Positions 1-11,283 of a DNA stretch of 26,609 nt are shown here, piece after piece (position 1 is the stretch's first letter; each line of letters begins with the position of its first letter). Made by a program: the position numbers and the translations under genes. The DNA lies in the IMG/VR virus record IMGVR_UViG_3300011113_000395, positions 1 through 26,609 of that record; one strand, 5' to 3'. The notes beneath the pieces were generated by a model. That model was not told the DNA's origin. It ran no database searches and saw nothing but the letters and a program-made list of their open reading frames with translations. The stretch is from a virus.

Positions 1-720
1 ATACACACCCTTAGCAAGACCAGGGAAGCGATAGTACAGACGATCAAGCGTCATCGTGTTCGCATAAGTTTCTGCCTTATCCAGTTTGAACAGGGAAGAA
101 GACGAACCGAATGGTTGACTGGAGAAGTTACCAGAACGCAGACGAGTCTTGAGCAGATCCTTACCAGTGAAGGAAGTATCAAAACTCAGGCGGAGGTCAT
201 AGTTGAAAGCAGTGTTGCCGACATTGCTGCTATTAGCAAGACGAGCACCGTCTACACCACCCAGAACAAAGGTTGCTTCACCCTTGAGTTTGGTAGTGGT
301 GGAGAACTGCATTGCTTCCAGAGTGCCGATTTTCTTTTCAGCAGAAGCAACACGACCGCGAAGAACACCCAATTCTTTTGCAAAATCATTTGCAAGACGA
401 TTAAGTTCTTCAGTATTTTCAGTTACACGCTCAAGGCAAGCATTCAGAAGAGCTGCTGCCTCAAAACGGGTCATTGCTTTTCCACCAAGGAAAGTGCTGT
501 TCTCATACCCAGCAACACAACCGTATTTTTCAACGAGGTTGCTGAGTGCCTGATAAGCCCAATCGGTGGGTTTTACATCAGACAGTTGTGTGACGCTTGT
601 AACCTGCTCATTGGAAGTATATTGGTTGACTGCTGCCATATTAAGATCTGCGGCATTTGCAGCAACAGGAGCAACCATTCCCAGAGCAACAGGTGCAAGC
701 ATCAGTTGTTTGAGTTTCAT
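1..720 (-). CDS. SLH-domain / OprB-type cyanobacterial outer-membrane porin (partial, N-terminal 240 aa)
   Basis: The open frame runs from ATG at 720 to the left edge without a stop, so the C-terminal part lies outside the window. Residues 1-23 form a signal peptide ending in VAANA-AD. Residues about 40-95 look like an S-layer homology domain: SDVKPTDWAYQALSNL, then YGCVAGYENSTF, then AMTRFEAAALLNACL. A short coiled coil (about 97-125) and the start of a beta-barrel (FSTTTKLKGEATFVLGG onward) follow. This order is that of cyanobacterial iron-uptake or general porins, in which the SLH domain binds the cell wall and the barrel spans the outer membrane. It lies downstream of the tRNA cluster with its own promoters. 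In a cyanophage it is probably a host-derived auxiliary gene. The substrate, and whether the barrel is complete, cannot be told from this part. Confidence 0.85.
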   Translation of the reverse strand, partial: MKLKQLMLAPVALGMVAPVAANAADLNMAAVNQYTSNEQVTSVTQLSDVKPTDWAYQALSNLVEKYGCVAGYENSTFLGGKAMTRFEAAALLNACLERVTENTEELNRLANDFAKELGVLRGRVASAEKKIGTLEAMQFSTTTKLKGEATFVLGGVDGARLANSSNVGNTAFNYDLRLSFDTSFTGKDLLKTRLRSGNFSSQPFGSSSSLFKLDKAETYANTMTLDRLYYRFPGLAKGVY

Positions 721-3094: not shown

Positions 3095-3556
3095 ATGAAA
3101 AAGCTTCTTCTAGCCTTTTCGTTATTCTTCACTACTCCTGCTTTTGCTGGTGAAATTACACATAAAATCGTTGATTCCGTACAATTAGGCGTTCAGGGTG
3201 CAGCGGTACAATCATCTAGAGTCGGTGGGCAATATGCCGTCTCTGGTACTAATATTAACGTAACAACTCTTGGTGGAGTTGGTTCCGCTGGTTCTTATGC
3301 AATCAACACCAATGGTTCAGCATTTTCTTTCAGTGAATCCTCAATTACTGCTGATACAGTTGTCACCACTCAGTCGGCAGCTTCTGGAACAATTGCTGCT
3401 CCCAACCTTTATAGCAACTCTACTACTCAGTTAGGTGGAGATAAAGGTTCTCTTGCAGGTACTCTGAGCTCAACTGGAGTTCCTACCATCACTGCTGGTG
3501 GTCCTGGAAGCACTGGTACAGCACAAAGAACCGTTGAATTGAGCGTATTCAAGTGA
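3095..3556 (+). CDS. exported Ser/Thr/Gly-rich protein, paralogue A
   Basis: This 153-residue protein has a clear signal peptide (KKLLLAFSLFFTTPAFA, cleavage before GEIT). The mature part is rich in Ser, Thr, Gly and Ala with no Cys. It has a repeated beta-like pattern: YAVSGTNINVTTLGG, then YAINTNGSAFSFSESSIT. The next gene repeats these two motifs (YTVTGTNIN and YTIQTQGAPFQFSETHLT), so the two are paralogues. It opens the plus-strand operon behind a late-type promoter and overlaps the next gene by 4 bases. It is likely periplasmic, outer-membrane or virion-surface. I recognise it only as the kind of secreted hypothetical protein found in cyanomyoviruses. Confidence 0.75.
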   Translation: MKKLLLAFSLFFTTPAFAGEITHKIVDSVQLGVQGAAVQSSRVGGQYAVSGTNINVTTLGGVGSAGSYAINTNGSAFSFSESSITADTVVTTQSAASGTIAAPNLYSNSTTQLGGDKGSLAGTLSSTGVPTITAGGPGSTGTAQRTVELSVFK

Positions 3557-3915
3557 GACATATAACTCTCGGACTGGTTGCAGTCTTGGGAGTTATGTCT
3601 CCTTCATACGCTGGACCAGTAACTCCCAACTTTACAAGTGGGACAATTACTTCTGAGACTAAAACTCGCACTGAAGTGATTGAAGTTATCAAACAAATAG
3701 AATATACCACTGGGACATCTTATACAGTCACTGGTACTAATATCAACATCCCTGGGACACCTGGCCCAGGAGCGAACTACACAATTCAAACGCAAGGTGC
3801 TCCGTTCCAGTTTAGTGAAACTCACTTGACTCCTGGAATTGCGAAAGAAACATTGATAGATCGCAAAACGGTAGAGGAATCTACCACAAACTCATTATCG
3901 GTCTTTACGCAATAG
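3553..3915 (+). CDS. exported beta-rich protein, paralogue B
   Basis: This 120-residue protein starts at a GTG overlapping the previous stop (GTGA), so it is probably translationally coupled. Residues 1-20 form a signal peptide (LGLVAVLGVMSPSYA, cleavage before GPVT). The mature chain carries TYTVTGTNIN-like and YTIQTQGAPFQFSE motifs matching its upstream neighbour. A charged stretch (KTRTEVIEVIKQIEY) takes the place of that neighbour's Gly-rich segment. It ends in NSLSVFTQ, close to the neighbour's VELSVFK. Its 3' end overlaps the next reading frame. The function is unknown; co-expression suggests the pair form one envelope or virion structure. Confidence 0.75.
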   Translation: MRHITLGLVAVLGVMSPSYAGPVTPNFTSGTITSETKTRTEVIEVIKQIEYTTGTSYTVTGTNINIPGTPGPGANYTIQTQGAPFQFSETHLTPGIAKETLIDRKTVEESTTNSLSVFTQ

Positions 3916-4448
3916 TATTTGCTTTACCAGCAACTGCTCAACAAGCACCGTCTAATACAAACATAGCAGGACCCTCAGCATCTGCGACTGGTAATGTTAC
4001 TAACCAGGCAGTACAGGTGCTTCAGGGTCCTTTTGCTGTGAATACTTATGGTTCTGGTGTGTCTTGTCAGGGTCCAACACTGAACTTGCAAACTTTTGGA
4101 TACAATAGTCTATCCAACAATAGTGACCCCACCACATTTCAACAGAACTCAATCAACGCAGGACTCTCTGCTGGGTTCTCTGTGCCCCTGGACGGGTCTT
4201 TTCAGGAATTATGTAAGGCAAGGGTGAGAACGGAAATAACCAGGCAGCAGGCGGAGGCAGACAAGGCACGACTTGATTTTGAGTTGGTTCGTCTTCTCAA
4301 GTGTGGTGAGGCAATCAAGTCTGGTATCTCATTCCATCCAAATAGTCCATACGCAAAAATATGTGCTGATGTAGTTGTTAAGTATCCAAATGTACAGGAT
4401 GTAGCCAATGGAAATAAAAATAATCAGTCCGCCAGCCGTAAGAATTGA
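3879..4448 (+). CDS. exported protein lacking a standard start codon
   Basis: The open frame continues upstream of the first GTG (4017) and encodes a good signal peptide, LIIGLYAIVFALPATAQ, at about 3891-3941. Between the preceding in-frame TGA (3816) and this segment there is no ATG, GTG or TTG. The only candidates are ATC at 3879, just after AGAGGA, and ATT at 3894. The ATC start gives 189 residues. The mature chain holds QVLQGPFAVNTYGSG, a Cys-containing segment, then a charged helix (ARVRTEITRQQAEADKARLD) and two late cysteines. It overlaps paralogue B upstream and the Pro-rich gene downstream. It may use a rare start, depend on frameshifting from the upstream gene, or carry a start-codon mutation or sequence error. 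Confidence 0.65.
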   Translation: MYHKLIIGLYAIVFALPATAQQAPSNTNIAGPSASATGNVTNQAVQVLQGPFAVNTYGSGVSCQGPTLNLQTFGYNSLSNNSDPTTFQQNSINAGLSAGFSVPLDGSFQELCKARVRTEITRQQAEADKARLDFELVRLLKCGEAIKSGISFHPNSPYAKICADVVVKYPNVQDVANGNKNNQSASRKN

Positions 4449-5091
4449 CGGACCACCGATCATTCCTACAATAGAACCTCCTGTTACAAGAAGAGCAGAG
4501 CGATCAGTAGCACACGGATTACAACTTCCAATCATCAATATTCCTGACCCAACCTTAAACTATCCAGTCATTGATGTTCCAACTCAAGAAGAGTTTGATG
4601 CTGCGGTGAGAGCAGAACAACAAAAACAACAACAAGAACAGGAAGAAAAAACTAGAGGACTACCTGATAGTAAACCTATCATTCCGCAAGTTCAGATTCC
4701 TCAAGAATCAATACAAGAAAAGATAATCAAAGAAACCAATACACCAACAACAAATCTAGGAGTGCCCGTTATTGAAGTACCAATCGTCGGAGAAATCCCC
4801 GTCCCACCTAAAGAGCAGGTTATTCTTGCTGGCACCACTGCTACTGCTTCTGTTGCTGCGGCTCTTGTTGGGAAATCTGTGGTGGAATGGTTGGTGAATA
4901 AAATGAAACCAATTGTTCAACAGATACTTGTAAGGGGTAAGAAACTCTTGAGTAGAGATCTTACCCCATATGAACTTCAGATATACTTTGCTTTTGAGAA
5001 AAGTCAGTCTCTAAAGAAAGTCAATAAGTTACTCAAGAAAGAACAGAAGAAAGATAAACAAAGGCAGTATAAAGAGTTTCACGAGAAGTGA
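4408..5091 (+). CDS. Pro-rich membrane-anchored protein, last gene of the plus-strand operon
   Basis: This 227-residue protein starts at an ATG 41 bases inside the previous gene. Residues 1-65 are Pro/Ile-rich (ISPPAV, PPIIPTIEPPV, IPDPTLNYPVIDVP). A Gln/Glu coiled-coil stretch follows (about 66-83), then a second Pro/Val-rich region. One membrane segment covers about 140-157 (ILAGTTATASVAAALVG). The C-terminal 60 residues are strongly basic (KKLLKKEQKKDKQRQYK). A tether crossing a membrane with a cytoplasmic basic tail fits, but the function is unknown. It ends directly against the convergent nuclease gene: TGA at 5089-5091, the opposite stop at 5092. Confidence 0.75.
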   Translation: MEIKIISPPAVRIDGPPIIPTIEPPVTRRAERSVAHGLQLPIINIPDPTLNYPVIDVPTQEEFDAAVRAEQQKQQQEQEEKTRGLPDSKPIIPQVQIPQESIQEKIIKETNTPTTNLGVPVIEVPIVGEIPVPPKEQVILAGTTATASVAAALVGKSVVEWLVNKMKPIVQQILVRGKKLLSRDLTPYELQIYFAFEKSQSLKKVNKLLKKEQKKDKQRQYKEFHEK

Positions 5092-5505: not shown

Positions 5506-5717
5506 TAGAAAGGTAATTTAAACTTCTCAGTATTTAGTTTCGAAATAGGTAATTTTTCAAATGCCTTATTAACTTGATTCTCAACAACCTTGCCAACAAA
5601 CTGTTCTGGATTATTGAGAATTGCCTCTGCTTTTTTATAAGTTACATAAGCACCATAACAAAGTGCTCCACTAATTGCCAGACTCGTCGCTGACAGAATG
5701 ATTGCTAGGTTCTTCAT
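5505..5717 (-). CDS. small single-span membrane protein
   Basis: This 70-residue protein has an N-terminal membrane segment (residues 3-26, LAIILSATSLAISGALCYGAYV) and then an amphipathic charged tail (KKAEAILNNPEQF). It lies in a chain of overlapping genes, with ATGA to the lipase upstream and TAATG to the nuclease downstream. The function is unknown. It could anchor or localise a neighbouring enzyme. Confidence 0.7.
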   Translation of the reverse strand: MKNLAIILSATSLAISGALCYGAYVTYKKAEAILNNPEQFVGKVVENQVNKAFEKLPISKLNTEKFKLPF

Positions 5718-6310
5718 TTCAGTAATTTCTCAATAGATTTGTAATAATAGACAGCATTATGATCTTCTACACCATCAAATTTCTTATCATCAGCATCTTC
5801 CAAATGAATCTCTGGATGAGTGTGAACGTATCCATTGATATAAGGTGGAGTTTTAGGAACAACATCATCACCATGAACAAAACGAAGATGCTCTACATTC
5901 TTTAGTCTTTCTCTCAAACCTCTACCACCTGGACGAGGAGATCCAATTGTGATAATTGCTAGGTCTGGTGCAGACTTAAGCATAAGGTCAGCAACGACAG
6001 TCGCAGTCGCACCACCAAGAGAGTGTCCTGCAAGAATCAGTTTTCTACCCTTCTCAAGGGACTCAAAATTTAATACCAATTCCGTGATCGTTCGGGTAGC
6101 ATTATCCTTAAATCCTCTATGAGTGTCTTCACTGCGGAATAAAAATTTTAGATTAGTTGCCCAGTCTGATGTTTCATTGGTTCCTTCAATTGCGAGGATA
6201 CAATATCCAGGAATACTCTTATCTACAATGAAATCATTCTTATCAGCATAAACATCAACACAATTTTTAACTGCCTTCAGAATCACTTCTGTGGGTAGTG
6301 TCGTGTTCAT
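5714..6310 (-). CDS. class 3 lipase (alpha/beta hydrolase)
   Basis: This 198-residue protein has the full lipase-3 signature. The oxyanion strand is ILAIEGTN (38-45) and the nucleophile elbow is LAGHSLGGA with Ser97. The acid is in HGDDVVPKTP (Asp148 or Asp149) and the His in VEDHNAV (His184). TIGSPRPG, the usual strand after the elbow, is also present. It should hydrolyse ester bonds in lipids. There is no signal peptide, so access to membranes would be from the cytoplasmic side or after lysis. It is coupled to small membrane proteins on both sides. The 50-aa membrane protein overlaps its start by 44 bases. A lipase within lysis-type genes suggests membrane damage or lipid recycling. Confidence 0.88.
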   Translation of the reverse strand: MNTTLPTEVILKAVKNCVDVYADKNDFIVDKSIPGYCILAIEGTNETSDWATNLKFLFRSEDTHRGFKDNATRTITELVLNFESLEKGRKLILAGHSLGGATATVVADLMLKSAPDLAIITIGSPRPGGRGLRERLKNVEHLRFVHGDDVVPKTPPYINGYVHTHPEIHLEDADDKKFDGVEDHNAVYYYKSIEKLLK

Positions 6311-6419
6311 CTTTCATCTCCTCGTTTGCTAACCGTAGTATATAGTAAATGATATACAATACAAAGATAAGTCCTGGAACAAGAATTGCCATTACTCCCC
6401 AGGGAAAATCTTGAGGCAT
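6267..6419 (-). CDS. 50-aa single-span membrane protein overlapping the lipase
   Basis: ATG at 6419 overlaps the upstream stop (TAATG). The peptide begins MPQDFPWGVMAILVPG, has a hydrophobic span at about residues 8-28 (LIFVLYIIYYIL) and a charged tail, and ends at 6267 after overlapping the lipase start by 44 bases. The overlap, the coupling signal and the transmembrane pattern support a real gene. Its function is unknown. Confidence 0.65.
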   Translation of the reverse strand: MPQDFPWGVMAILVPGLIFVLYIIYYILRLANEEMKDEHDTTHRSDSEGS

Positions 6420-7165
6420 TAGAACTTACCTTCTACACAATAATCCGCTTTTTTATTTGGCGCATATTCCTTATGACCTTCTTGTGGTTTCATCCATCCA
6501 CATCCAATCAACCATTCCATCGTCATCGGAGTGGGTCTTACCTGCTCCCAGAGTGGTCCTTTCGCACACATCTCTAGGTGCTTTGCCGTTTGACCTAACT
6601 GTTCTTCTGCCCAGTTCGCATCTGCTTCCCAAGGCACAGCACGGCTTTGACCCATAGACTCATAAGAAAGCCTTGTGGTCTTCATTACCCAAGATGGTAT
6701 TTCAGCATCTTGATGAACCTGTGCCATAAATGCTGTTTCTATTCCACCACCCATACAGTCCTGAACAACGTGCCATCCTTCGTGACGTAGTGTTCCTAGA
6801 AACTCTCTTGGGTCTTTGAGTAACTCTTCATTTATAAAGAGACGGTTATACTTTGGTTTATATAACCCTACTGTTCTTGGTGTGAAATATCTAGGTGGAG
6901 CAATATAAACACCAACATTGACTTTCTCTAATCCTACTAAAATACGCTTGACTTCTTCTCTGAATGGGTCAAGTTCTTTTGCTTTGAGTAATTCTGATTC
7001 TGATGTAAGTTTCTCAACACCTTCAGTACATTCTAATAGAATCATACAACCCATCGCTGCCAAACTATATGGAGGTACAGTTGGTTGTTTCTTTACTATT
7101 TTTTCAGCACTTGCGGGAAGAACTAAACTTAATGATAGACCGATTGCCGTGAGGAGTTTTTTCAT
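6419..7165 (-). CDS. exported HExxH zinc-metallopeptidase-like protein
   Basis: The start at 7165 is chosen because GAGGGACGAGA precedes this ATG and a signal peptide follows at once (KKLLTAIGLSLSLVLPASA, cleavage before EKI). The frame is open 27 codons further up. The 248-residue product contains LRHEGWHVVQDC, with a His128-Glu129-x-x-His132 zinc motif, and a downstream EADANWAEEQ that could hold the third ligand. Six further cysteines suggest disulfides in the periplasm. It probably cleaves envelope proteins, or is a peptidase fold used for binding. It overlaps the 64-aa gene upstream by 4 bases and the 50-aa gene downstream. Confidence 0.7.
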   Translation of the reverse strand: MKKLLTAIGLSLSLVLPASAEKIVKKQPTVPPYSLAAMGCMILLECTEGVEKLTSESELLKAKELDPFREEVKRILVGLEKVNVGVYIAPPRYFTPRTVGLYKPKYNRLFINEELLKDPREFLGTLRHEGWHVVQDCMGGGIETAFMAQVHQDAEIPSWVMKTTRLSYESMGQSRAVPWEADANWAEEQLGQTAKHLEMCAKGPLWEQVRPTPMTMEWLIGCGWMKPQEGHKEYAPNKKADYCVEGKF

Positions 7166-7356
7166 TCTCGTCCCTCTTGATGATGTATCCAAACTTTCAA
7201 ATCTTTTACATACTTTCTTAAGGTTTCTGCTTGTAATAGGTGCCACTCTTCTTGTGTATCTAGATACAGTCTCATATGATTATCAACAGCATCTAGACAC
7301 TTTTTAATTACAGGATTCCAAGGCTCCCGAATCGGAGTGTTCCACTCTCGTGGCAT
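7162..7356 (-). CDS. small hydrophilic protein, unknown
   Basis: This 64-residue protein is rich in Trp, His and charged residues (REWNTPIREPWNPVIKK, then a predicted helix with QEEWHLLQAETLRKYVKDL). It has no membrane segment. It lies between the Lys-rich 35-aa gene and the exported metallopeptidase, overlapping the latter by ATGA. I do not recognise it. Confidence 0.65.
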   Translation of the reverse strand: MPREWNTPIREPWNPVIKKCLDAVDNHMRLYLDTQEEWHLLQAETLRKYVKDLKVWIHHQEGRE

Positions 7357-7362
7357 AATACC

Positions 7363-7470
7363 TCACTTTTTTTTACCACCGTTTTTTGCTTTGTTCGCCG
7401 TCGCATTTCCTTGGTTCTGCTTTTTATTATTAGCAGAACCTTTCTTGCCTTTGTTTGCGGATTTTGCCAT
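7363..7470 (-). CDS. 35-aa Lys/Asn-rich basic peptide
   Basis: ATG at 7470 overlaps the upstream stop as TAATG. The product is almost wholly Lys, Asn, Gly, Ala and Gln (AKSANKGKKGSANNKKQNQ...GGKKK), disordered and very basic. It could bind nucleic acid or acidic membranes. Coupled translation supports it as a gene. The low complexity gives no family. Confidence 0.6.
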   Translation of the reverse strand: MAKSANKGKKGSANNKKQNQGNATANKAKNGGKKK

Positions 7471-7799
7471 TATGCTCCACCTGTGCGGGGTTGAACTTGA
7501 CCTTCTTCCAGTGCTTCAACTCTTGCTTCAAGAGTTGCTTCAGGTGCTGGAGGTGTTGGAGGTGTTTCTACAACTTCTTCTCTGCGAGGCTCTTCTTCTT
7601 TTTTCTCATCCTCATCACCACCTTTCTTCATAGTATTAATACCAAAGGTAGCAGCAGAGGCAGTGAATACTGTCGCAATAAAAGTGGGGTCCATCTTAGA
7701 TAGAGCCCCAGCATAACTTGCGGTGAGAAGTGCGGCAGACCAACCCAAAATCGCAATACGAATAACTTGTCCCATAGCGTTTTCTTTTTTCTTATCCAT
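7470..7799 (-). CDS. holin-like two-span membrane protein
   Basis: Two hydrophobic helices (about residues 11-33, IRIAILGWSAALLTASYAGA, and 37-55, MDPTFIATVFTASAATFGI) are separated by a short turn. A charged Glu/Lys/Pro-rich C-terminal tail follows (KKGGDEDEKKEEEPRREE). At 109 residues the size, two spans and charged tail fit a class II holin. The gene lies among lytic enzymes and behind a late-type promoter. No experimental holin signature can be read from sequence, so holin is an inference. Met9 is an alternative start. Confidence 0.7.
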   Translation of the reverse strand: MDKKKENAMGQVIRIAILGWSAALLTASYAGALSKMDPTFIATVFTASAATFGINTMKKGGDEDEKKEEEPRREEVVETPPTPPAPEATLEARVEALEEGQVQPRTGGA

Positions 7800-7824: not shown

Positions 7825-7848
7825 TATTTAGGTTTTTAGAACCTAAAC
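7825..7848 (-). promoter_or_regulatory. Hairpin overlapping a late-type promoter
   Basis: CTAAATA on the minus strand (7825-7831) lies at the end of a perfect 8-bp stem, TTTAGGTT/AACCTAAA (7828-7835 with 7841-7848). The hairpin also covers the last codons of the 616-aa gene. It probably combines 3' end formation for that gene with the promoter of the holin-like gene. Confidence 0.45.
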
Positions 7849-9686
7849 TTAACATTTGCGGCAACAGAGTTATTAGTAACTCCGTTATTTACACCATGAG
7901 AACCTTCAACAATTAACAGTTCTTTATAGTCAACAGAGGCAGTTACACCATAAGAACTATCAGTTGCATAAGCACCTTCTACACTGACGCCAAAGAGATC
8001 TTTCTTCTTACCACCAAAACGAGTCTCTAACTTAAGACCTGCTTCACCAACATGTGTGGTGTTATCAGATGCAGCAACAACTCTTGCAGATTCTGGAGAT
8101 CCAGATTCAGTATATGCATTTCTACTTACATTCTGAACCGTGTGTCCAATAAATGGTTTGATGTTCTTAGTTAAGTGTAGATAGAGTCTATTAGAAACCC
8201 ACCACTCTGAACCAGTTGTTTCACCAGCATTATTGAATGTACCCTCAACTGTTCTGTTGTAGTTATATTTGCTGTTTGCAATTGCAGCATTTGTATTCAG
8301 AGTCAGTGTGTTGCCGTGGAATGTATTAAAGATTCCATGAACACCTTTGGTCTGTTGTGTGCTTGAGTCAACACCACGAAGGTTTATGTTGACTTGATTA
8401 TACTGGTAACCAACAGTCCAACCTTTGGATAAATCTACCTCAAAACCACCACCGAAAATCTTAGAGTCAGCAGAATATCCATCAGCATTATAAGACTGAA
8501 CGAATCTATTGTTCTCAAATACTCTGAGTTTCTGTTTTGTTCTGGTAGGTTCGTGATTTAAAAGTCCATTGATACCATCATTAACACCATCAAGAACTTC
8601 TAGTTGGTCAATACGTCCAAAATAATCTCTGGAGGCATATGCAACATCAACTGTTGCTGCTCCAGTTGTGACTGAAGTTGGTGTTCCGTCAGTATAAACT
8701 TGTGTATAAACGGGTGTGGTTGTAGTTGTAGTTGTGGTATATGCATTAACTTTTTGTCTACCACCACTTTCAGATGCTGTATGCTGCACCGTAGAAACAG
8801 GAACAACATTATAAGTTCTGGTTCTAACCCAATCAATTACGTTAGTCTGAGTAACAACTGTTGTTCCAGCATTATCATCAGTGGTAACTGAAGTTACAAC
8901 TGGTGTTCCATTCGTTGTAGTGGTAGAACCATCACTCCAAGTTGTTACTGTAACTGGAGTTGTGGTGGTTGTAACTGTGGTTGTTGGAATGGTTGTTACT
9001 GAAGAATCAGTGTAATGAGTTTCAGTTTGATTTCCATTAGCATCAGTTCCCATTACGTGACGATGAGGAGAACCATTTACAGTTCTGGTTCCATAAGTTG
9101 TTGATGTAGTAACAATGGAGTTTCCAGGAGCAGTTGAGGTAACTGTTGGAGGTGGAGGTGTTCCTCCAGTTTCATAAATGTCCAGAATACCATTTTGGTT
9201 AGCATCACCAGAAAGTGCTGCTGCTGAAAGACTTACGGTACTGGATAGGATAACATTATCCATAGGCATCCAGTTGACTGTTGGAGACCCAGCGGCATTA
9301 TATGTAAACTGATAATCACCAGCGGCAAGTCCAGTGAAAGTTACACCCTGCCAAGTGGATGATACCTGACTATTGCTTCCATAAGCAACGAGTTGTGATC
9401 CGTTAGAAGTAAAATAGTTTGTACCATCAATCAGTCCATCTGGTTTTGTTGCTGAAAGTAAAGTCCAATTGACGGTTGTTGGTGCAAAACTAGTTCCGTT
9501 GATACCTTGTAGAGTTAAAGTACCTTCGTTAAAAGTGGTTCCAGGATGCCAGTTACCATACCAGAAAGTAACCGATCCACCACCCCCACCAACATATCCA
9601 ATAGAGTTGGTGTGTGCTAATGCTGCTGTTGGTGCTCCCATCAAAAGAGCAGACGCTACAGCAAGCGCCCTCGTAGCGTAAGACAT
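7836..9686 (-). CDS. exported 616-aa protein with predicted C-terminal outer-membrane beta-barrel (autotransporter-like)
   Basis: A signal peptide (residues 1-24, ALAVASALLMGAPTAALA) is followed by a beta-rich N-terminal domain with SVTFWYGNWHPGTTF. Then come an EF-hand or dockerin-like loop, GDANQNGILD, and a long Thr/Val-rich linker (about 175-345) with runs such as TTTTTTTTPVYTQVYTDG. The last 270 residues alternate polar and aromatic residues, e.g. GWTVGYQYNQVNINLRGV and LFGVSVEGAYATDSSYGVT. They end in AANVKFRF, a terminal aromatic residue typical of barrels assembled by BAM. This layout matches an autotransporter or large outer-membrane protein. In a phage it could change the infected cell's surface or be a virion protein. 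A late-type promoter lies about 145 bases upstream. Confidence 0.75.
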   Translation of the reverse strand: MSYATRALAVASALLMGAPTAALAHTNSIGYVGGGGGSVTFWYGNWHPGTTFNEGTLTLQGINGTSFAPTTVNWTLLSATKPDGLIDGTNYFTSNGSQLVAYGSNSQVSSTWQGVTFTGLAAGDYQFTYNAAGSPTVNWMPMDNVILSSTVSLSAAALSGDANQNGILDIYETGGTPPPPTVTSTAPGNSIVTTSTTYGTRTVNGSPHRHVMGTDANGNQTETHYTDSSVTTIPTTTVTTTTTPVTVTTWSDGSTTTTNGTPVVTSVTTDDNAGTTVVTQTNVIDWVRTRTYNVVPVSTVQHTASESGGRQKVNAYTTTTTTTTPVYTQVYTDGTPTSVTTGAATVDVAYASRDYFGRIDQLEVLDGVNDGINGLLNHEPTRTKQKLRVFENNRFVQSYNADGYSADSKIFGGGFEVDLSKGWTVGYQYNQVNINLRGVDSSTQQTKGVHGIFNTFHGNTLTLNTNAAIANSKYNYNRTVEGTFNNAGETTGSEWWVSNRLYLHLTKNIKPFIGHTVQNVSRNAYTESGSPESARVVAASDNTTHVGEAGLKLETRFGGKKKDLFGVSVEGAYATDSSYGVTASVDYKELLIVEGSHGVNNGVTNNSVAANVKFRF

Positions 9687-9828: not shown

Positions 9829-9835
9829 TATTTAG
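9829..9835 (-). promoter_or_regulatory. Late-type promoter (CTAAATA)
   Basis: The minus strand reads CTAAATAGTTTC, starting at the base after the endolysin TAA. The leader to ATG 9686 is about 140 bases and holds short hairpins (AATCA/TGATT around 9810-9824). Confidence 0.55.
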
Positions 9836-10504
9836 TTATCCCTTCTTCCAGGATTCACCTTCTGCTTTTCTTCTACGTGCAAGACCTGCTTCAACATTAG
9901 AACCAGGATTGCGGTAGAGATATAAAGCATCGGGAACTAAATCCCATTCTTTATTCTTTAGGCGTTTAGTAATAGTATTAAAGTTATCGCCACCGTAAAA
10001 AGCGGCACCAAGATTATAAGCAAAGCTGAGCAAAGCTCCTCTTTTTCCATCTGACATTTCACTCCAATGTGGGATTTTTCTGAGTGCAGGAAGAAACTCT
10101 TTCTTGCACTGTTCAATCAGCAGTTCATCTGCTTCTGCTTGAGTTAGGGTATCACCCATCTTAAATGCCGAACCATCCTTCTTACGGGTGGATCCCCAAC
10201 CAATTGTGATTGGAAGTCCACCAGTCAGAGGATCTGGATATGCCTTTAAATGGCATCCCTCAAACTCCTTGATCAATTTGATGCCCATTTGAGGAACATC
10301 ATCACCACCTGTTACAGGAGCTGCAGCAGCAGGGGTTGCTGGTGCAGCACTAGTCTTTTTTCCGCGAAAGAGCTCCGCCCACTCTACGTTATCTTCCAGA
10401 TATTTAACAGGAAGATTATCTTCTAACCATTGAACTGCTTTAACATGATTAGGATTTCTTTCATCATAGAACTGAAAGAAATTATGAAGATCGATTCTTG
10501 CCAT
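9836..10504 (-). CDS. endolysin, GH24 (T4-type) lysozyme with N-terminal shared module
   Basis: ATG at 10504 follows GGAGGACAAA and gives 222 residues. Residues 1-50 are a module (DLHNFFQFYDERNPNHV, AVQWLEDNLP) also found at the start of the C39-like peptidase gene. An Ala/Pro linker (about 52-66) follows. The GH24 domain then has IKEFEGCHLKAYPDP and LPITIGWGST. Candidate catalytic residues are Glu82, Asp91 and Thr100, which match the Glu/Asp/Thr set of T4 lysozyme. It cleaves the MurNAc-GlcNAc bond of peptidoglycan. No signal peptide is present, so it needs a holin, perhaps the two-span protein at 7470-7799. The module may direct it to the virion or wall. Confidence 0.9.
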   Translation of the reverse strand: MARIDLHNFFQFYDERNPNHVKAVQWLEDNLPVKYLEDNVEWAELFRGKKTSAAPATPAAAAPVTGGDDVPQMGIKLIKEFEGCHLKAYPDPLTGGLPITIGWGSTRKKDGSAFKMGDTLTQAEADELLIEQCKKEFLPALRKIPHWSEMSDGKRGALLSFAYNLGAAFYGGDNFNTITKRLKNKEWDLVPDALYLYRNPGSNVEAGLARRRKAEGESWKKG

Positions 10505-10637
10505 TTTGTCCTCCGAAATTTGGAAAGTATATATTAAACAATTCACTTGCTTCTTTATGCTTACCGTGGTTGGTAAGTTTTTTGACTTCTTCTAAAATTT
10601 TTGCTTTAAATTCAGTCGAAAATTCTTCCCCATCCAT
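10482..10637 (-). CDS. 51-aa small charged protein between the two lytic enzymes
   Basis: AGGAGG precedes two consecutive ATGs (10640 and 10637); the second has the better spacing. The product is helical and charged (EEFSTEFKAKILEEVKKL, then GKHKEASELF) and ends NGKNRSS. It overlaps the end of the peptidase gene and the first bases of the endolysin, so the three are translated together. Its C-terminus matches that of the small gene before the peptidase (both end RSS), because both overlap the DNA coding for the shared module. Confidence 0.6.
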   Translation of the reverse strand: MDGEEFSTEFKAKILEEVKKLTNHGKHKEASELFNIYFPNFGGQNGKNRSS

Positions 10638-11283
10638 CATTGCCTCCTGGACACCAGCGGTGCTTAAGCATTGCCTTTGTATAAATGGTTTTCTTACCAT
10701 TTGTTACTGGTCCAGTATAGTTGTCATTGCATGAACCATATGGATCATTAACATAATATCCTTTACCATCTGGAGTTTTACCAATTACAACACACATGTG
10801 CCCACCAGTAGGTGCAGATAGAGGACCACGGTGCAGGATACCAATAACGACAGGTTTCCCAGCATCGAGACTTTTATCAACATCAGCAAAAGAAAGATTG
10901 TAACTAAAGTGTGACTTAACTCCATAAGCTGCCAGAACTTTTGTCTGGACGGCATGATCGGTTGTATCACCAATCTCAAATACTTTCTTAACATACTCAT
11001 CATCGCCTTTAATGCTTCCTGGCTTGAGGAAAGCAAGACACATAGCACATGACGAACTATTGCAAGTTCTATGTGCATCTCTGTAGTTGTCTACTTGATT
11101 GAAATATGGAACATCAAGTACTGCTGGAGTTGGTGGTTTTGTTCTGTAGATACCAATCCAATCAGTCTCTGCATCATCTAGGAATTGAGCGGGAAGGTTA
11201 TCCTCCAACCATTGTACCGCTGCTACATGATTATCATTCTTCTCATCATAAAATTTAAAAAAGTTATGAAGATCTAGAGTCAT
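10612..11283 (-). CDS. C39-like (papain-fold) peptidase with N-terminal shared module
   Basis: This 223-residue protein starts with the same module as the endolysin (DLHNFFKFYDEKNDNHV, AVQWLEDNLP, residues 3-31). After a Pro linker comes a C39-type domain: LDVPYFNQVD with Gln63, then RTCNSSSCAMCLA with Cys74 as the likely nucleophile. GGHMCVVIGKT carries His162, and YYVNDPYGS carries Asp180. The Cys/His/Asp order is that of bacteriocin-peptidase-like or NlpC-like peptidases. It probably cuts peptide cross-links in peptidoglycan, complementing the endolysin, or processes a protein. It sits between two small genes that overlap it. Its late-type promoter is the one before the GIY-YIG gene. Confidence 0.78.
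   Translation of the reverse strand: MTLDLHNFFKFYDEKNDNHVAAVQWLEDNLPAQFLDDAETDWIGIYRTKPPTPAVLDVPYFNQVDNYRDAHRTCNSSSCAMCLAFLKPGSIKGDDEYVKKVFEIGDTTDHAVQTKVLAAYGVKSHFSYNLSFADVDKSLDAGKPVVIGILHRGPLSAPTGGHMCVVIGKTPDGKGYYVNDPYGSCNDNYTGPVTNGKKTIYTKAMLKHRWCPGGNDGWGRIFD

What the first reader, a model, noticed from the sequence alone, without database searches (positions are those of the whole stretch)
7836..9686. 616-aa autotransporter-like outer-membrane protein in a phage
Signal peptide, surface-type beta domain, Ca-loop, Thr-rich linker and a C-terminal barrel ending in FRF match the plan of an outer-membrane protein inserted by the host BAM complex. With the porin it makes two predicted outer-membrane proteins in one phage, which suggests active remodelling of the infected cell surface.
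Basis: partly seen in the sequence, partly recalled or inferred. Interest (0 to 1): 0.76.

Follow-up and report, generated by a model that had tools for sequence, protein, structure and literature searches.

The report
Phage-borne autotransporter, an optional cassette
A virus of freshwater picocyanobacteria carries a bacterial-style autotransporter (a protein that threads its own head through the outer membrane onto the cell surface) as an optional gene slotted into its lysis cassette, with three exchangeable heads, which suggests that the virus redecorates the surface of the cell it is killing.

Summary
The C-terminal 272 residues are a genuine type Va autotransporter translocator. AlphaFold2 gives a lumenal-type helix plus 12 strands (pLDDT 87, pTM 0.82). 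The best structural match is NalP (Z 29.7, rmsd 1.9 A over 254 residues), then EstA, EspP and Hbp, so a trimeric fibre is not supported. Close phage relatives pass Pfam PF03797, although the window's copy is below detection. The N-terminal domain is 45-59% identical to heads of proteobacterial proteins that also end in PF03797 barrels. The window comes from a freshwater kyanovirus lineage (Synechococcus phages DSL-LC02/LC03). In 58 of 109 loci the gene lies exactly between lysozyme and a small holin-like gene; in 51 it is absent and those genes are nearly adjacent, two of them with deletion scars. It is therefore an accessory, dispensable cassette, yet under purifying selection. Three unrelated heads (55/35/8 of 98 proteins) are exchanged on one barrel family. 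Most likely it is displayed on the infected cell's surface late in infection; its ligand and benefit are inferred, not shown. The predicted porin is real but cut by the window end.

The parts
7836..9686 (-). 616-aa autotransporter gene (whole ORF, ATG start, stop at 7836-7838)
   Evidence: family of 98 unique complete proteins; purifying selection
9615..9686 (-). Sec signal peptide, residues 1-24 (ALA|HT cleavage site)
   Evidence: sequence; similar pattern in all head types
9159..9614 (-). head (passenger module A), residues 25-176, HTNSIGY...FWYGNWH domain
   Evidence: 45-59% identity to heads of bacterial autotransporters
9171..9206 (-). Ca-binding-type loop DANQNGILDIYE, residues 161-172
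   Evidence: sequence; not fully conserved in relatives
8655..9158 (-). Thr-rich stalk, residues 177-344, modelled as long beta strands
   Evidence: AF2 (block pLDDT mostly 70-93); total protein length varies 531-879 aa between relatives
8565..8606 (-). helix preceding the barrel, residues 361-374 (equivalent to the lumenal helix of autotransporters)
   Evidence: AF2
7839..8528 (-). 12-stranded outer-membrane beta-barrel (translocator), residues 387-616, C-terminal Phe
   Evidence: AF2; Foldseek; VIA-align; PF03797 hits of relatives
9829..9835 (-). CTAAATA, late-promoter-like motif between lysozyme and the autotransporter
   Evidence: motif class in PMC1524935; present in only 9 of 69 relatives within 200 nt
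7825..7831 (-). CTAAATA between the autotransporter stop and the holin-like gene
   Evidence: in 158 of 174 loci, not made non-redundant
9836..10546 (-). lysozyme/endolysin (upstream neighbour of the cassette)
   Evidence: Pfam PF00959 79 bits
10612..11283 (-). C39-like peptidase / endolysin
   Evidence: PF13529 59 bits, phrog_10051 endolysin
7470..7799 (-). 109-aa protein with two hydrophobic segments, holin candidate (downstream neighbour)
   Evidence: N-terminal half matched in 440 cyanophage records; PHROG families of unknown function; holin role inferred
1..720 (-). SLH/por_somb-type cyanobacterial porin, incomplete at the window end
   Evidence: NF033921 213 bits

Best explanation
The gene encodes a monomeric (type Va) autotransporter carried by a T4-like freshwater cyanophage as an optional cassette inside its lysis module. 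Proposed steps: (1) late in infection the protein is made with a Sec signal peptide and exported; (2) the host Omp85/BAM machinery inserts its 12-stranded barrel in the outer membrane; (3) the Thr-rich stalk and N-terminal head pass through the barrel and are displayed on, or shed from, the infected cell; (4) the displayed head changes what the cell surface binds. The likeliest benefit is masking or competing for the adsorption surface (less superinfection and less loss of progeny on the dying cell or its debris), or protection against grazing. Shown here: gene, family, fold, position, optionality and head exchange. Inferred: export, insertion and timing (from anatomy, gene position and promoter-like motifs). 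Speculative: the ligand and the benefit.
For: Fold: helix plus 12 strands, pTM 0.82; Foldseek top hits are all autotransporters (EstA 4e-12, NalP 1e-11); NalP Z 29.7, rmsd 1.9 over 254 residues, EstA 28.3, EspP 25.7; the best non-autotransporter is 18.3. Family: 13 of 41 phage relatives hit PF03797, best 1.8e-17; L038 scores 51 bits against a cut-off of 26; DSL-LC03's own barrel 33 bits. Origin: module A heads in proteobacterial proteins that end in PF03797 barrels (L089 202, L151 197, L152 134, L093 110, L092 99 bits; L090 47.6 bits only). Position: between lysozyme and holin-like gene in 58 of 109 loci; absent with those genes nearly adjacent in 51; scars in L220 and L221; one copy in each of 6 large positive records and none in 4 large negative ones. 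Head exchange: 3 unrelated heads; 12 changes on the barrel tree where 2 would suffice. Precedent: surface alteration of infected cells against superinfection or grazing was proposed for P-SSM2 LPS genes and S-PM2's S-layer protein (PMC2984593).
Against: No expression, fractionation or virion data. The window's own copy has no PF03797 match at E 1. No ligand or enzymatic motif was found in any head. Whether freshwater picocyanobacteria accept a type Va substrate is untested. A promoter-like motif upstream of the gene itself is present in only a minority of relatives.
Confidence: 0.68

Rival explanations
1. It is a lysis factor: the barrel acts at the outer-membrane step of lysis, replacing or helping a spanin.
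For: It always sits between lysozyme and the holin candidate where present; lysis needs an outer-membrane step in Gram-negative hosts; no spanin was recognised nearby (the only Rz-like hit, E 0.09, is to the holin candidate).
Against: 51 of 109 close relatives have the same lysis genes without it, and two show deletion scars, so it is not needed for lysis. Exchange of unrelated heads fits a binding or display role better.
Confidence: 0.15
2. It is a virion protein (fibre or decoration) with a coincidental barrel-like C terminus.
For: Thr-rich repetitive proteins are common in tail fibres; virions were not examined.
Against: Sec signal peptide; closed 12-strand barrel with an autotransporter-specific match; bacterial homologues with the same head and a PF03797 barrel; dispensable in relatives.
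Confidence: 0.04
3. It mainly secretes or sheds its head as a soluble or adhesive factor (for example clumping cells or binding particles) rather than altering phage adsorption.
For: Many type Va proteins release their passenger or act as adhesins (general knowledge); the stalked head is adhesin-like.
Against: No protease site or adhesin motif was identified; the same data fit surface retention.
Confidence: 0.13

Closest known systems
Type Va (classical) autotransporters, Pfam PF03797; structures NalP, EstA, EspP, Hbp
   Same: Signal peptide, N-terminal passenger, helix and 12-stranded C-terminal barrel with terminal Phe; NalP Z 29.7, rmsd 1.9; relatives pass PF03797.
   Different: Encoded by a T4-like phage inside a lysis module, with three exchangeable heads on a Thr-rich stalk; window copy below PF03797 detection.
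Bacterial HTNSIGY-head autotransporters (L089, L090, L092, L093, L151, L152)
   Same: Head 45-59% identical where compared and the same head-to-barrel order.
   Different: Barrels only remotely alike (profile E 2e-7 and 6e-7 in a 4-sequence search, L089 and L090); linkers differ (Big_5 Ig-like domains in L092/L093).
'Autotransporter outer membrane beta-barrel domain-containing protein' of Synechococcus phage DSL-LC03 (WJZ47857) and hypothetical protein WJZ48311 of DSL-LC02
   Same: Direct orthologues, 57-62% identical, same C39-lysozyme-autotransporter-holin order.
   Different: Annotated in the record only; the genome paper does not mention it (PMC10611076).
'Autotransporter beta-domain' proteins of uncultured Caudovirales (BFVD A0A6J5R861, A0A6J5L9T3, A0A6J5KUW0)
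   Same: Same barrel fold in a phage protein (Foldseek 2e-12 to 3e-9).
   Different: Only 15% identical; other proteins, whose context was not studied here.
Cyanophage surface-altering genes: S-PM2 S-layer-homology protein, P-SSM2 LPS genes
   Same: Proposed to change the infected cell's surface against superinfection or grazing (PMC2984593).
   Different: Different proteins; no autotransporter.

Membership tests
Type Va autotransporter (PF03797) | C-terminal 12-stranded beta-barrel translocator with preceding helix | tested here: met
   AF2 pTM 0.82, helix plus 12 strands; NalP Z 29.7 rmsd 1.9 over 254
Type Va autotransporter (PF03797) | Sequence match to PF03797 (the profile used for T5aSS in TXSScan, PMC4793230) | tested here: inconclusive
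   Window copy has no hit; 13 of 41 members of its family hit, several above the cut-off
Type Va autotransporter (PF03797) | N-terminal Sec signal peptide and passenger on the same chain | tested here: met
   By reading the sequence: MSYATRALAVASALLMGAPTAALA|HT and head 25-176; no signal-peptide predictor was available
Type Va autotransporter (PF03797) | C-terminal aromatic residue (beta-signal for BAM) | tested here: met
   Ends VKFRF, F616 invariant in A1
Type Va autotransporter (PF03797) | Passenger actually displayed or secreted through the barrel | not testable with these tools
   Needs fractionation and surface labelling
Trimeric autotransporter / trimeric phage fibre | A few strands per chain, barrel or fibre completed only by three chains | tested here: not met
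   A single chain forms all 12 strands
Spanin / essential lysis protein | Required member of the lysis cassette | tested here: not met
   Absent from 51 of 109 otherwise equal cassettes, with deletion scars in two; lysis function itself not tested
Moron-like accessory cassette | Gene present or absent between two genes that are adjacent in relatives | tested here: met
   58 with and 51 without; flanking genes 18-24 nt apart in most empty sites

The most novel reading that the evidence does not exclude
A phage lineage has domesticated a bacterial autotransporter as a display platform with interchangeable heads (three unrelated heads on one barrel family) for redecorating infected cyanobacterial cells, possibly together with a cyanobacterial-type porin. 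It would be a type V secretion protein dedicated to infected-cell surface remodelling in lytic infection, of a kind the cyanobacterial host may itself lack.
Probability: 0.35. Interest if true: 0.75.

Novelty: new variant of a known kind. Interest (0 to 1): 0.58.

Why it matters
Phages that rebuild the surface of the cell they are killing are usually discussed for lysogens (LPS-modifying or outer-membrane morons) or through carbohydrate genes. Here is a well-defined secretion protein, common in freshwater cyanophages, optional in otherwise equal genomes, with natural head exchanges and natural deletions. That makes a direct comparison possible: matched phages with and without the cassette, assayed for superinfection, readsorption, lysis and grazing.

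Tried and rejected
Barrel profile against 84,980 bacterial and archaeal species genomes: no relative (the pattern prefilter makes this a weak negative). Pfam, NCBIfam and PHROGs with the window protein itself: nothing. PDB by sequence: only EstA at E 0.048, suggestive but not relied on. Barrel against plasmids: none. Heads B and C against phage records: none; head B shows a weak partial similarity to NCBIfam NF038132 (24-30 bits, cut-off 90), not enough to name it. Stalk hits to PARP, TonB and DNA polymerase subunit models are low-complexity artefacts. The trimeric-fibre reading was rejected on the single-chain 12-strand model. Two profile comparisons were mis-framed and failed.

Full report
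Observation. The ORF 7836-9686 is real but lies on the minus strand. It encodes 616 residues: signal peptide (1-24), beta-rich head (25-176, closing with a DANQNGILDIYE loop), Thr-rich stalk (177-344) and C-terminal domain (345-616) ending in VKFRF.

Family. One scan of IMG/VR gave 179 encoding relatives, and a scan with the barrel profile 293, of which 80 were kept each time. Among annotated phages only the Dishui Lake Synechococcus phages DSL-LC02 and DSL-LC03 match; both are Kyanoviridae with psbA and psbD near the gene. The paper on these genomes does not mention the protein. Ninety-eight unique complete proteins were collected. Purifying selection acts on head, stalk and barrel (median dN/dS 0.14, 0.22, 0.11).

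Fold. With an alignment of 41 family members, residues 345-616 are predicted with pLDDT 87.4 and pTM 0.82 as one helix and 12 strands. Foldseek's top hits are all autotransporter translocators. VIA-align gives NalP Z 29.7, rmsd 1.9 A, 254 residues; EstA 28.3; EspP 25.7; Hbp 24.8; AIDA-I 24.3; the best other barrel 18.3. The full-length model, although uncertain between domains (pTM 0.47), also finds the autotransporters first. At sequence level the window's protein is not seen by Pfam, but 13 of 41 relatives are (best 1.8e-17), L038 at 51 bits against a cut-off of 26 and DSL-LC03 at 33 bits.

Origin. The head, but not the barrel, finds bacterial relatives in GTDB genomes. They include a 559-aa alphaproteobacterial MAG protein, a 476-aa protein on a 423-kb Legionellales contig and 902-aa Hydrogenophilales proteins, whose heads are 45-59% identical and which end in PF03797 barrels. 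Two more came from a sample of 398 genomes of the phylum of G002, both with PF03797 barrels (197 and 134 bits). The phage protein therefore belongs to a bacterial autotransporter lineage by head and architecture. An acidobacterial protein has the head with a TIG domain and no barrel.

Position and optionality. In every sufficiently long locus the order is C39 peptidase - lysozyme - autotransporter - holin-like gene (lysozyme was not detected in L043). Anchoring independently on lysozyme and on the holin-like gene gave 109 loci with both: 58 carry the autotransporter between them, 51 do not, and the genes are then almost adjacent. Four large negative records (98-177 kb) have no copy anywhere; six large positive records have exactly one. 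Two empty sites keep scars: in L221 the alignment to the window jumps from 9679 to 7881, leaving the start and the last codons of the gene; in L220 it jumps from 9822 to 7883. The gene is thus gained and lost as a unit and is not required for lysis.

Head exchange. Three unrelated heads occur, A (55), B (35) and C (8). On a barrel tree the head label needs 12 changes where 2 would suffice, and strongly supported branches alone force several. Total length varies from 531 to 879 aa.

Timing. A CTAAATA motif lies in the spacer between the autotransporter and the holin-like gene in 158 of 174 loci, and in the window another directly follows the end of lysozyme. CTAAATA is a putative late promoter in the T4-like phage Aeh1 (PMC1524935), and NATAAATA in S-PM2 (PMC2984593). 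Late expression is therefore plausible but not shown; in the whole window the motif is not significantly enriched (8 against 5.1 expected).

Mechanism. Sec export, BAM insertion and passenger display follow from established knowledge of type Va autotransporters. The benefit is inferred. Surface alteration of infected cells against superinfection or grazing has been proposed for other cyanophage genes (PMC2984593). Head exchange and dispensability fit an interaction at the surface better than a mechanical lysis step.

Porin. The por_somb-like porin is confirmed. It accompanies the autotransporter in all 6 large IMG/VR positive records and is full-length in none of 4 negative ones, but it is absent from DSL-LC02/LC03 and present in S-SRM01, which has no detectable autotransporter. 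Co-occurrence may reflect kinship.

Novelty. Phage proteins annotated as autotransporters already exist in databases (DSL-LC03; three BFVD entries), but in the searches made here no paper was found that describes them. What is new is the defined family, its place as an optional cassette in the lysis module, its bacterial relatives and its exchangeable heads.

Noticed in passing
window 1-720 (-): Cyanobacterial por_somb-type porin with SLH region, cut by the window end; related phage porins in S-SRM01 (75% identical), partial matches in S-CREM1 and S-PM2.
   Followed up: partly
window 9836-11283 (-): C39-like peptidase and lysozyme are tandem genes that share a related N-terminal segment (DLHNFFxFYDExNxNHVxAVQWLEDNLP), as if one bipartite endolysin had been split or duplicated.
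   Followed up: no
window 5714-6310 (-): Class 3 lipase/esterase (PF01764, 66 bits) near the lysis module; present in only some relatives.
   Followed up: no
window 6419-7246 (-): 275-aa protein with an apparent signal peptide, phrog_591, unknown function, in most autotransporter loci.
   Followed up: no
window 3095-5091 (+): Plus-strand cluster of small, apparently secreted proteins (phrog_564, phrog_650/DUF6322, phrog_848) conserved next to the lysis region.
   Followed up: no
L220:4870-4960, L221:4900-4990: Deletion scars of the autotransporter gene, with only the ends of the gene left.
   Followed up: yes
L025, L043, L068, L082: The block downstream of the holin-like gene is inverted relative to the window, while autotransporter and holin-like gene stay together.
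   Followed up: no
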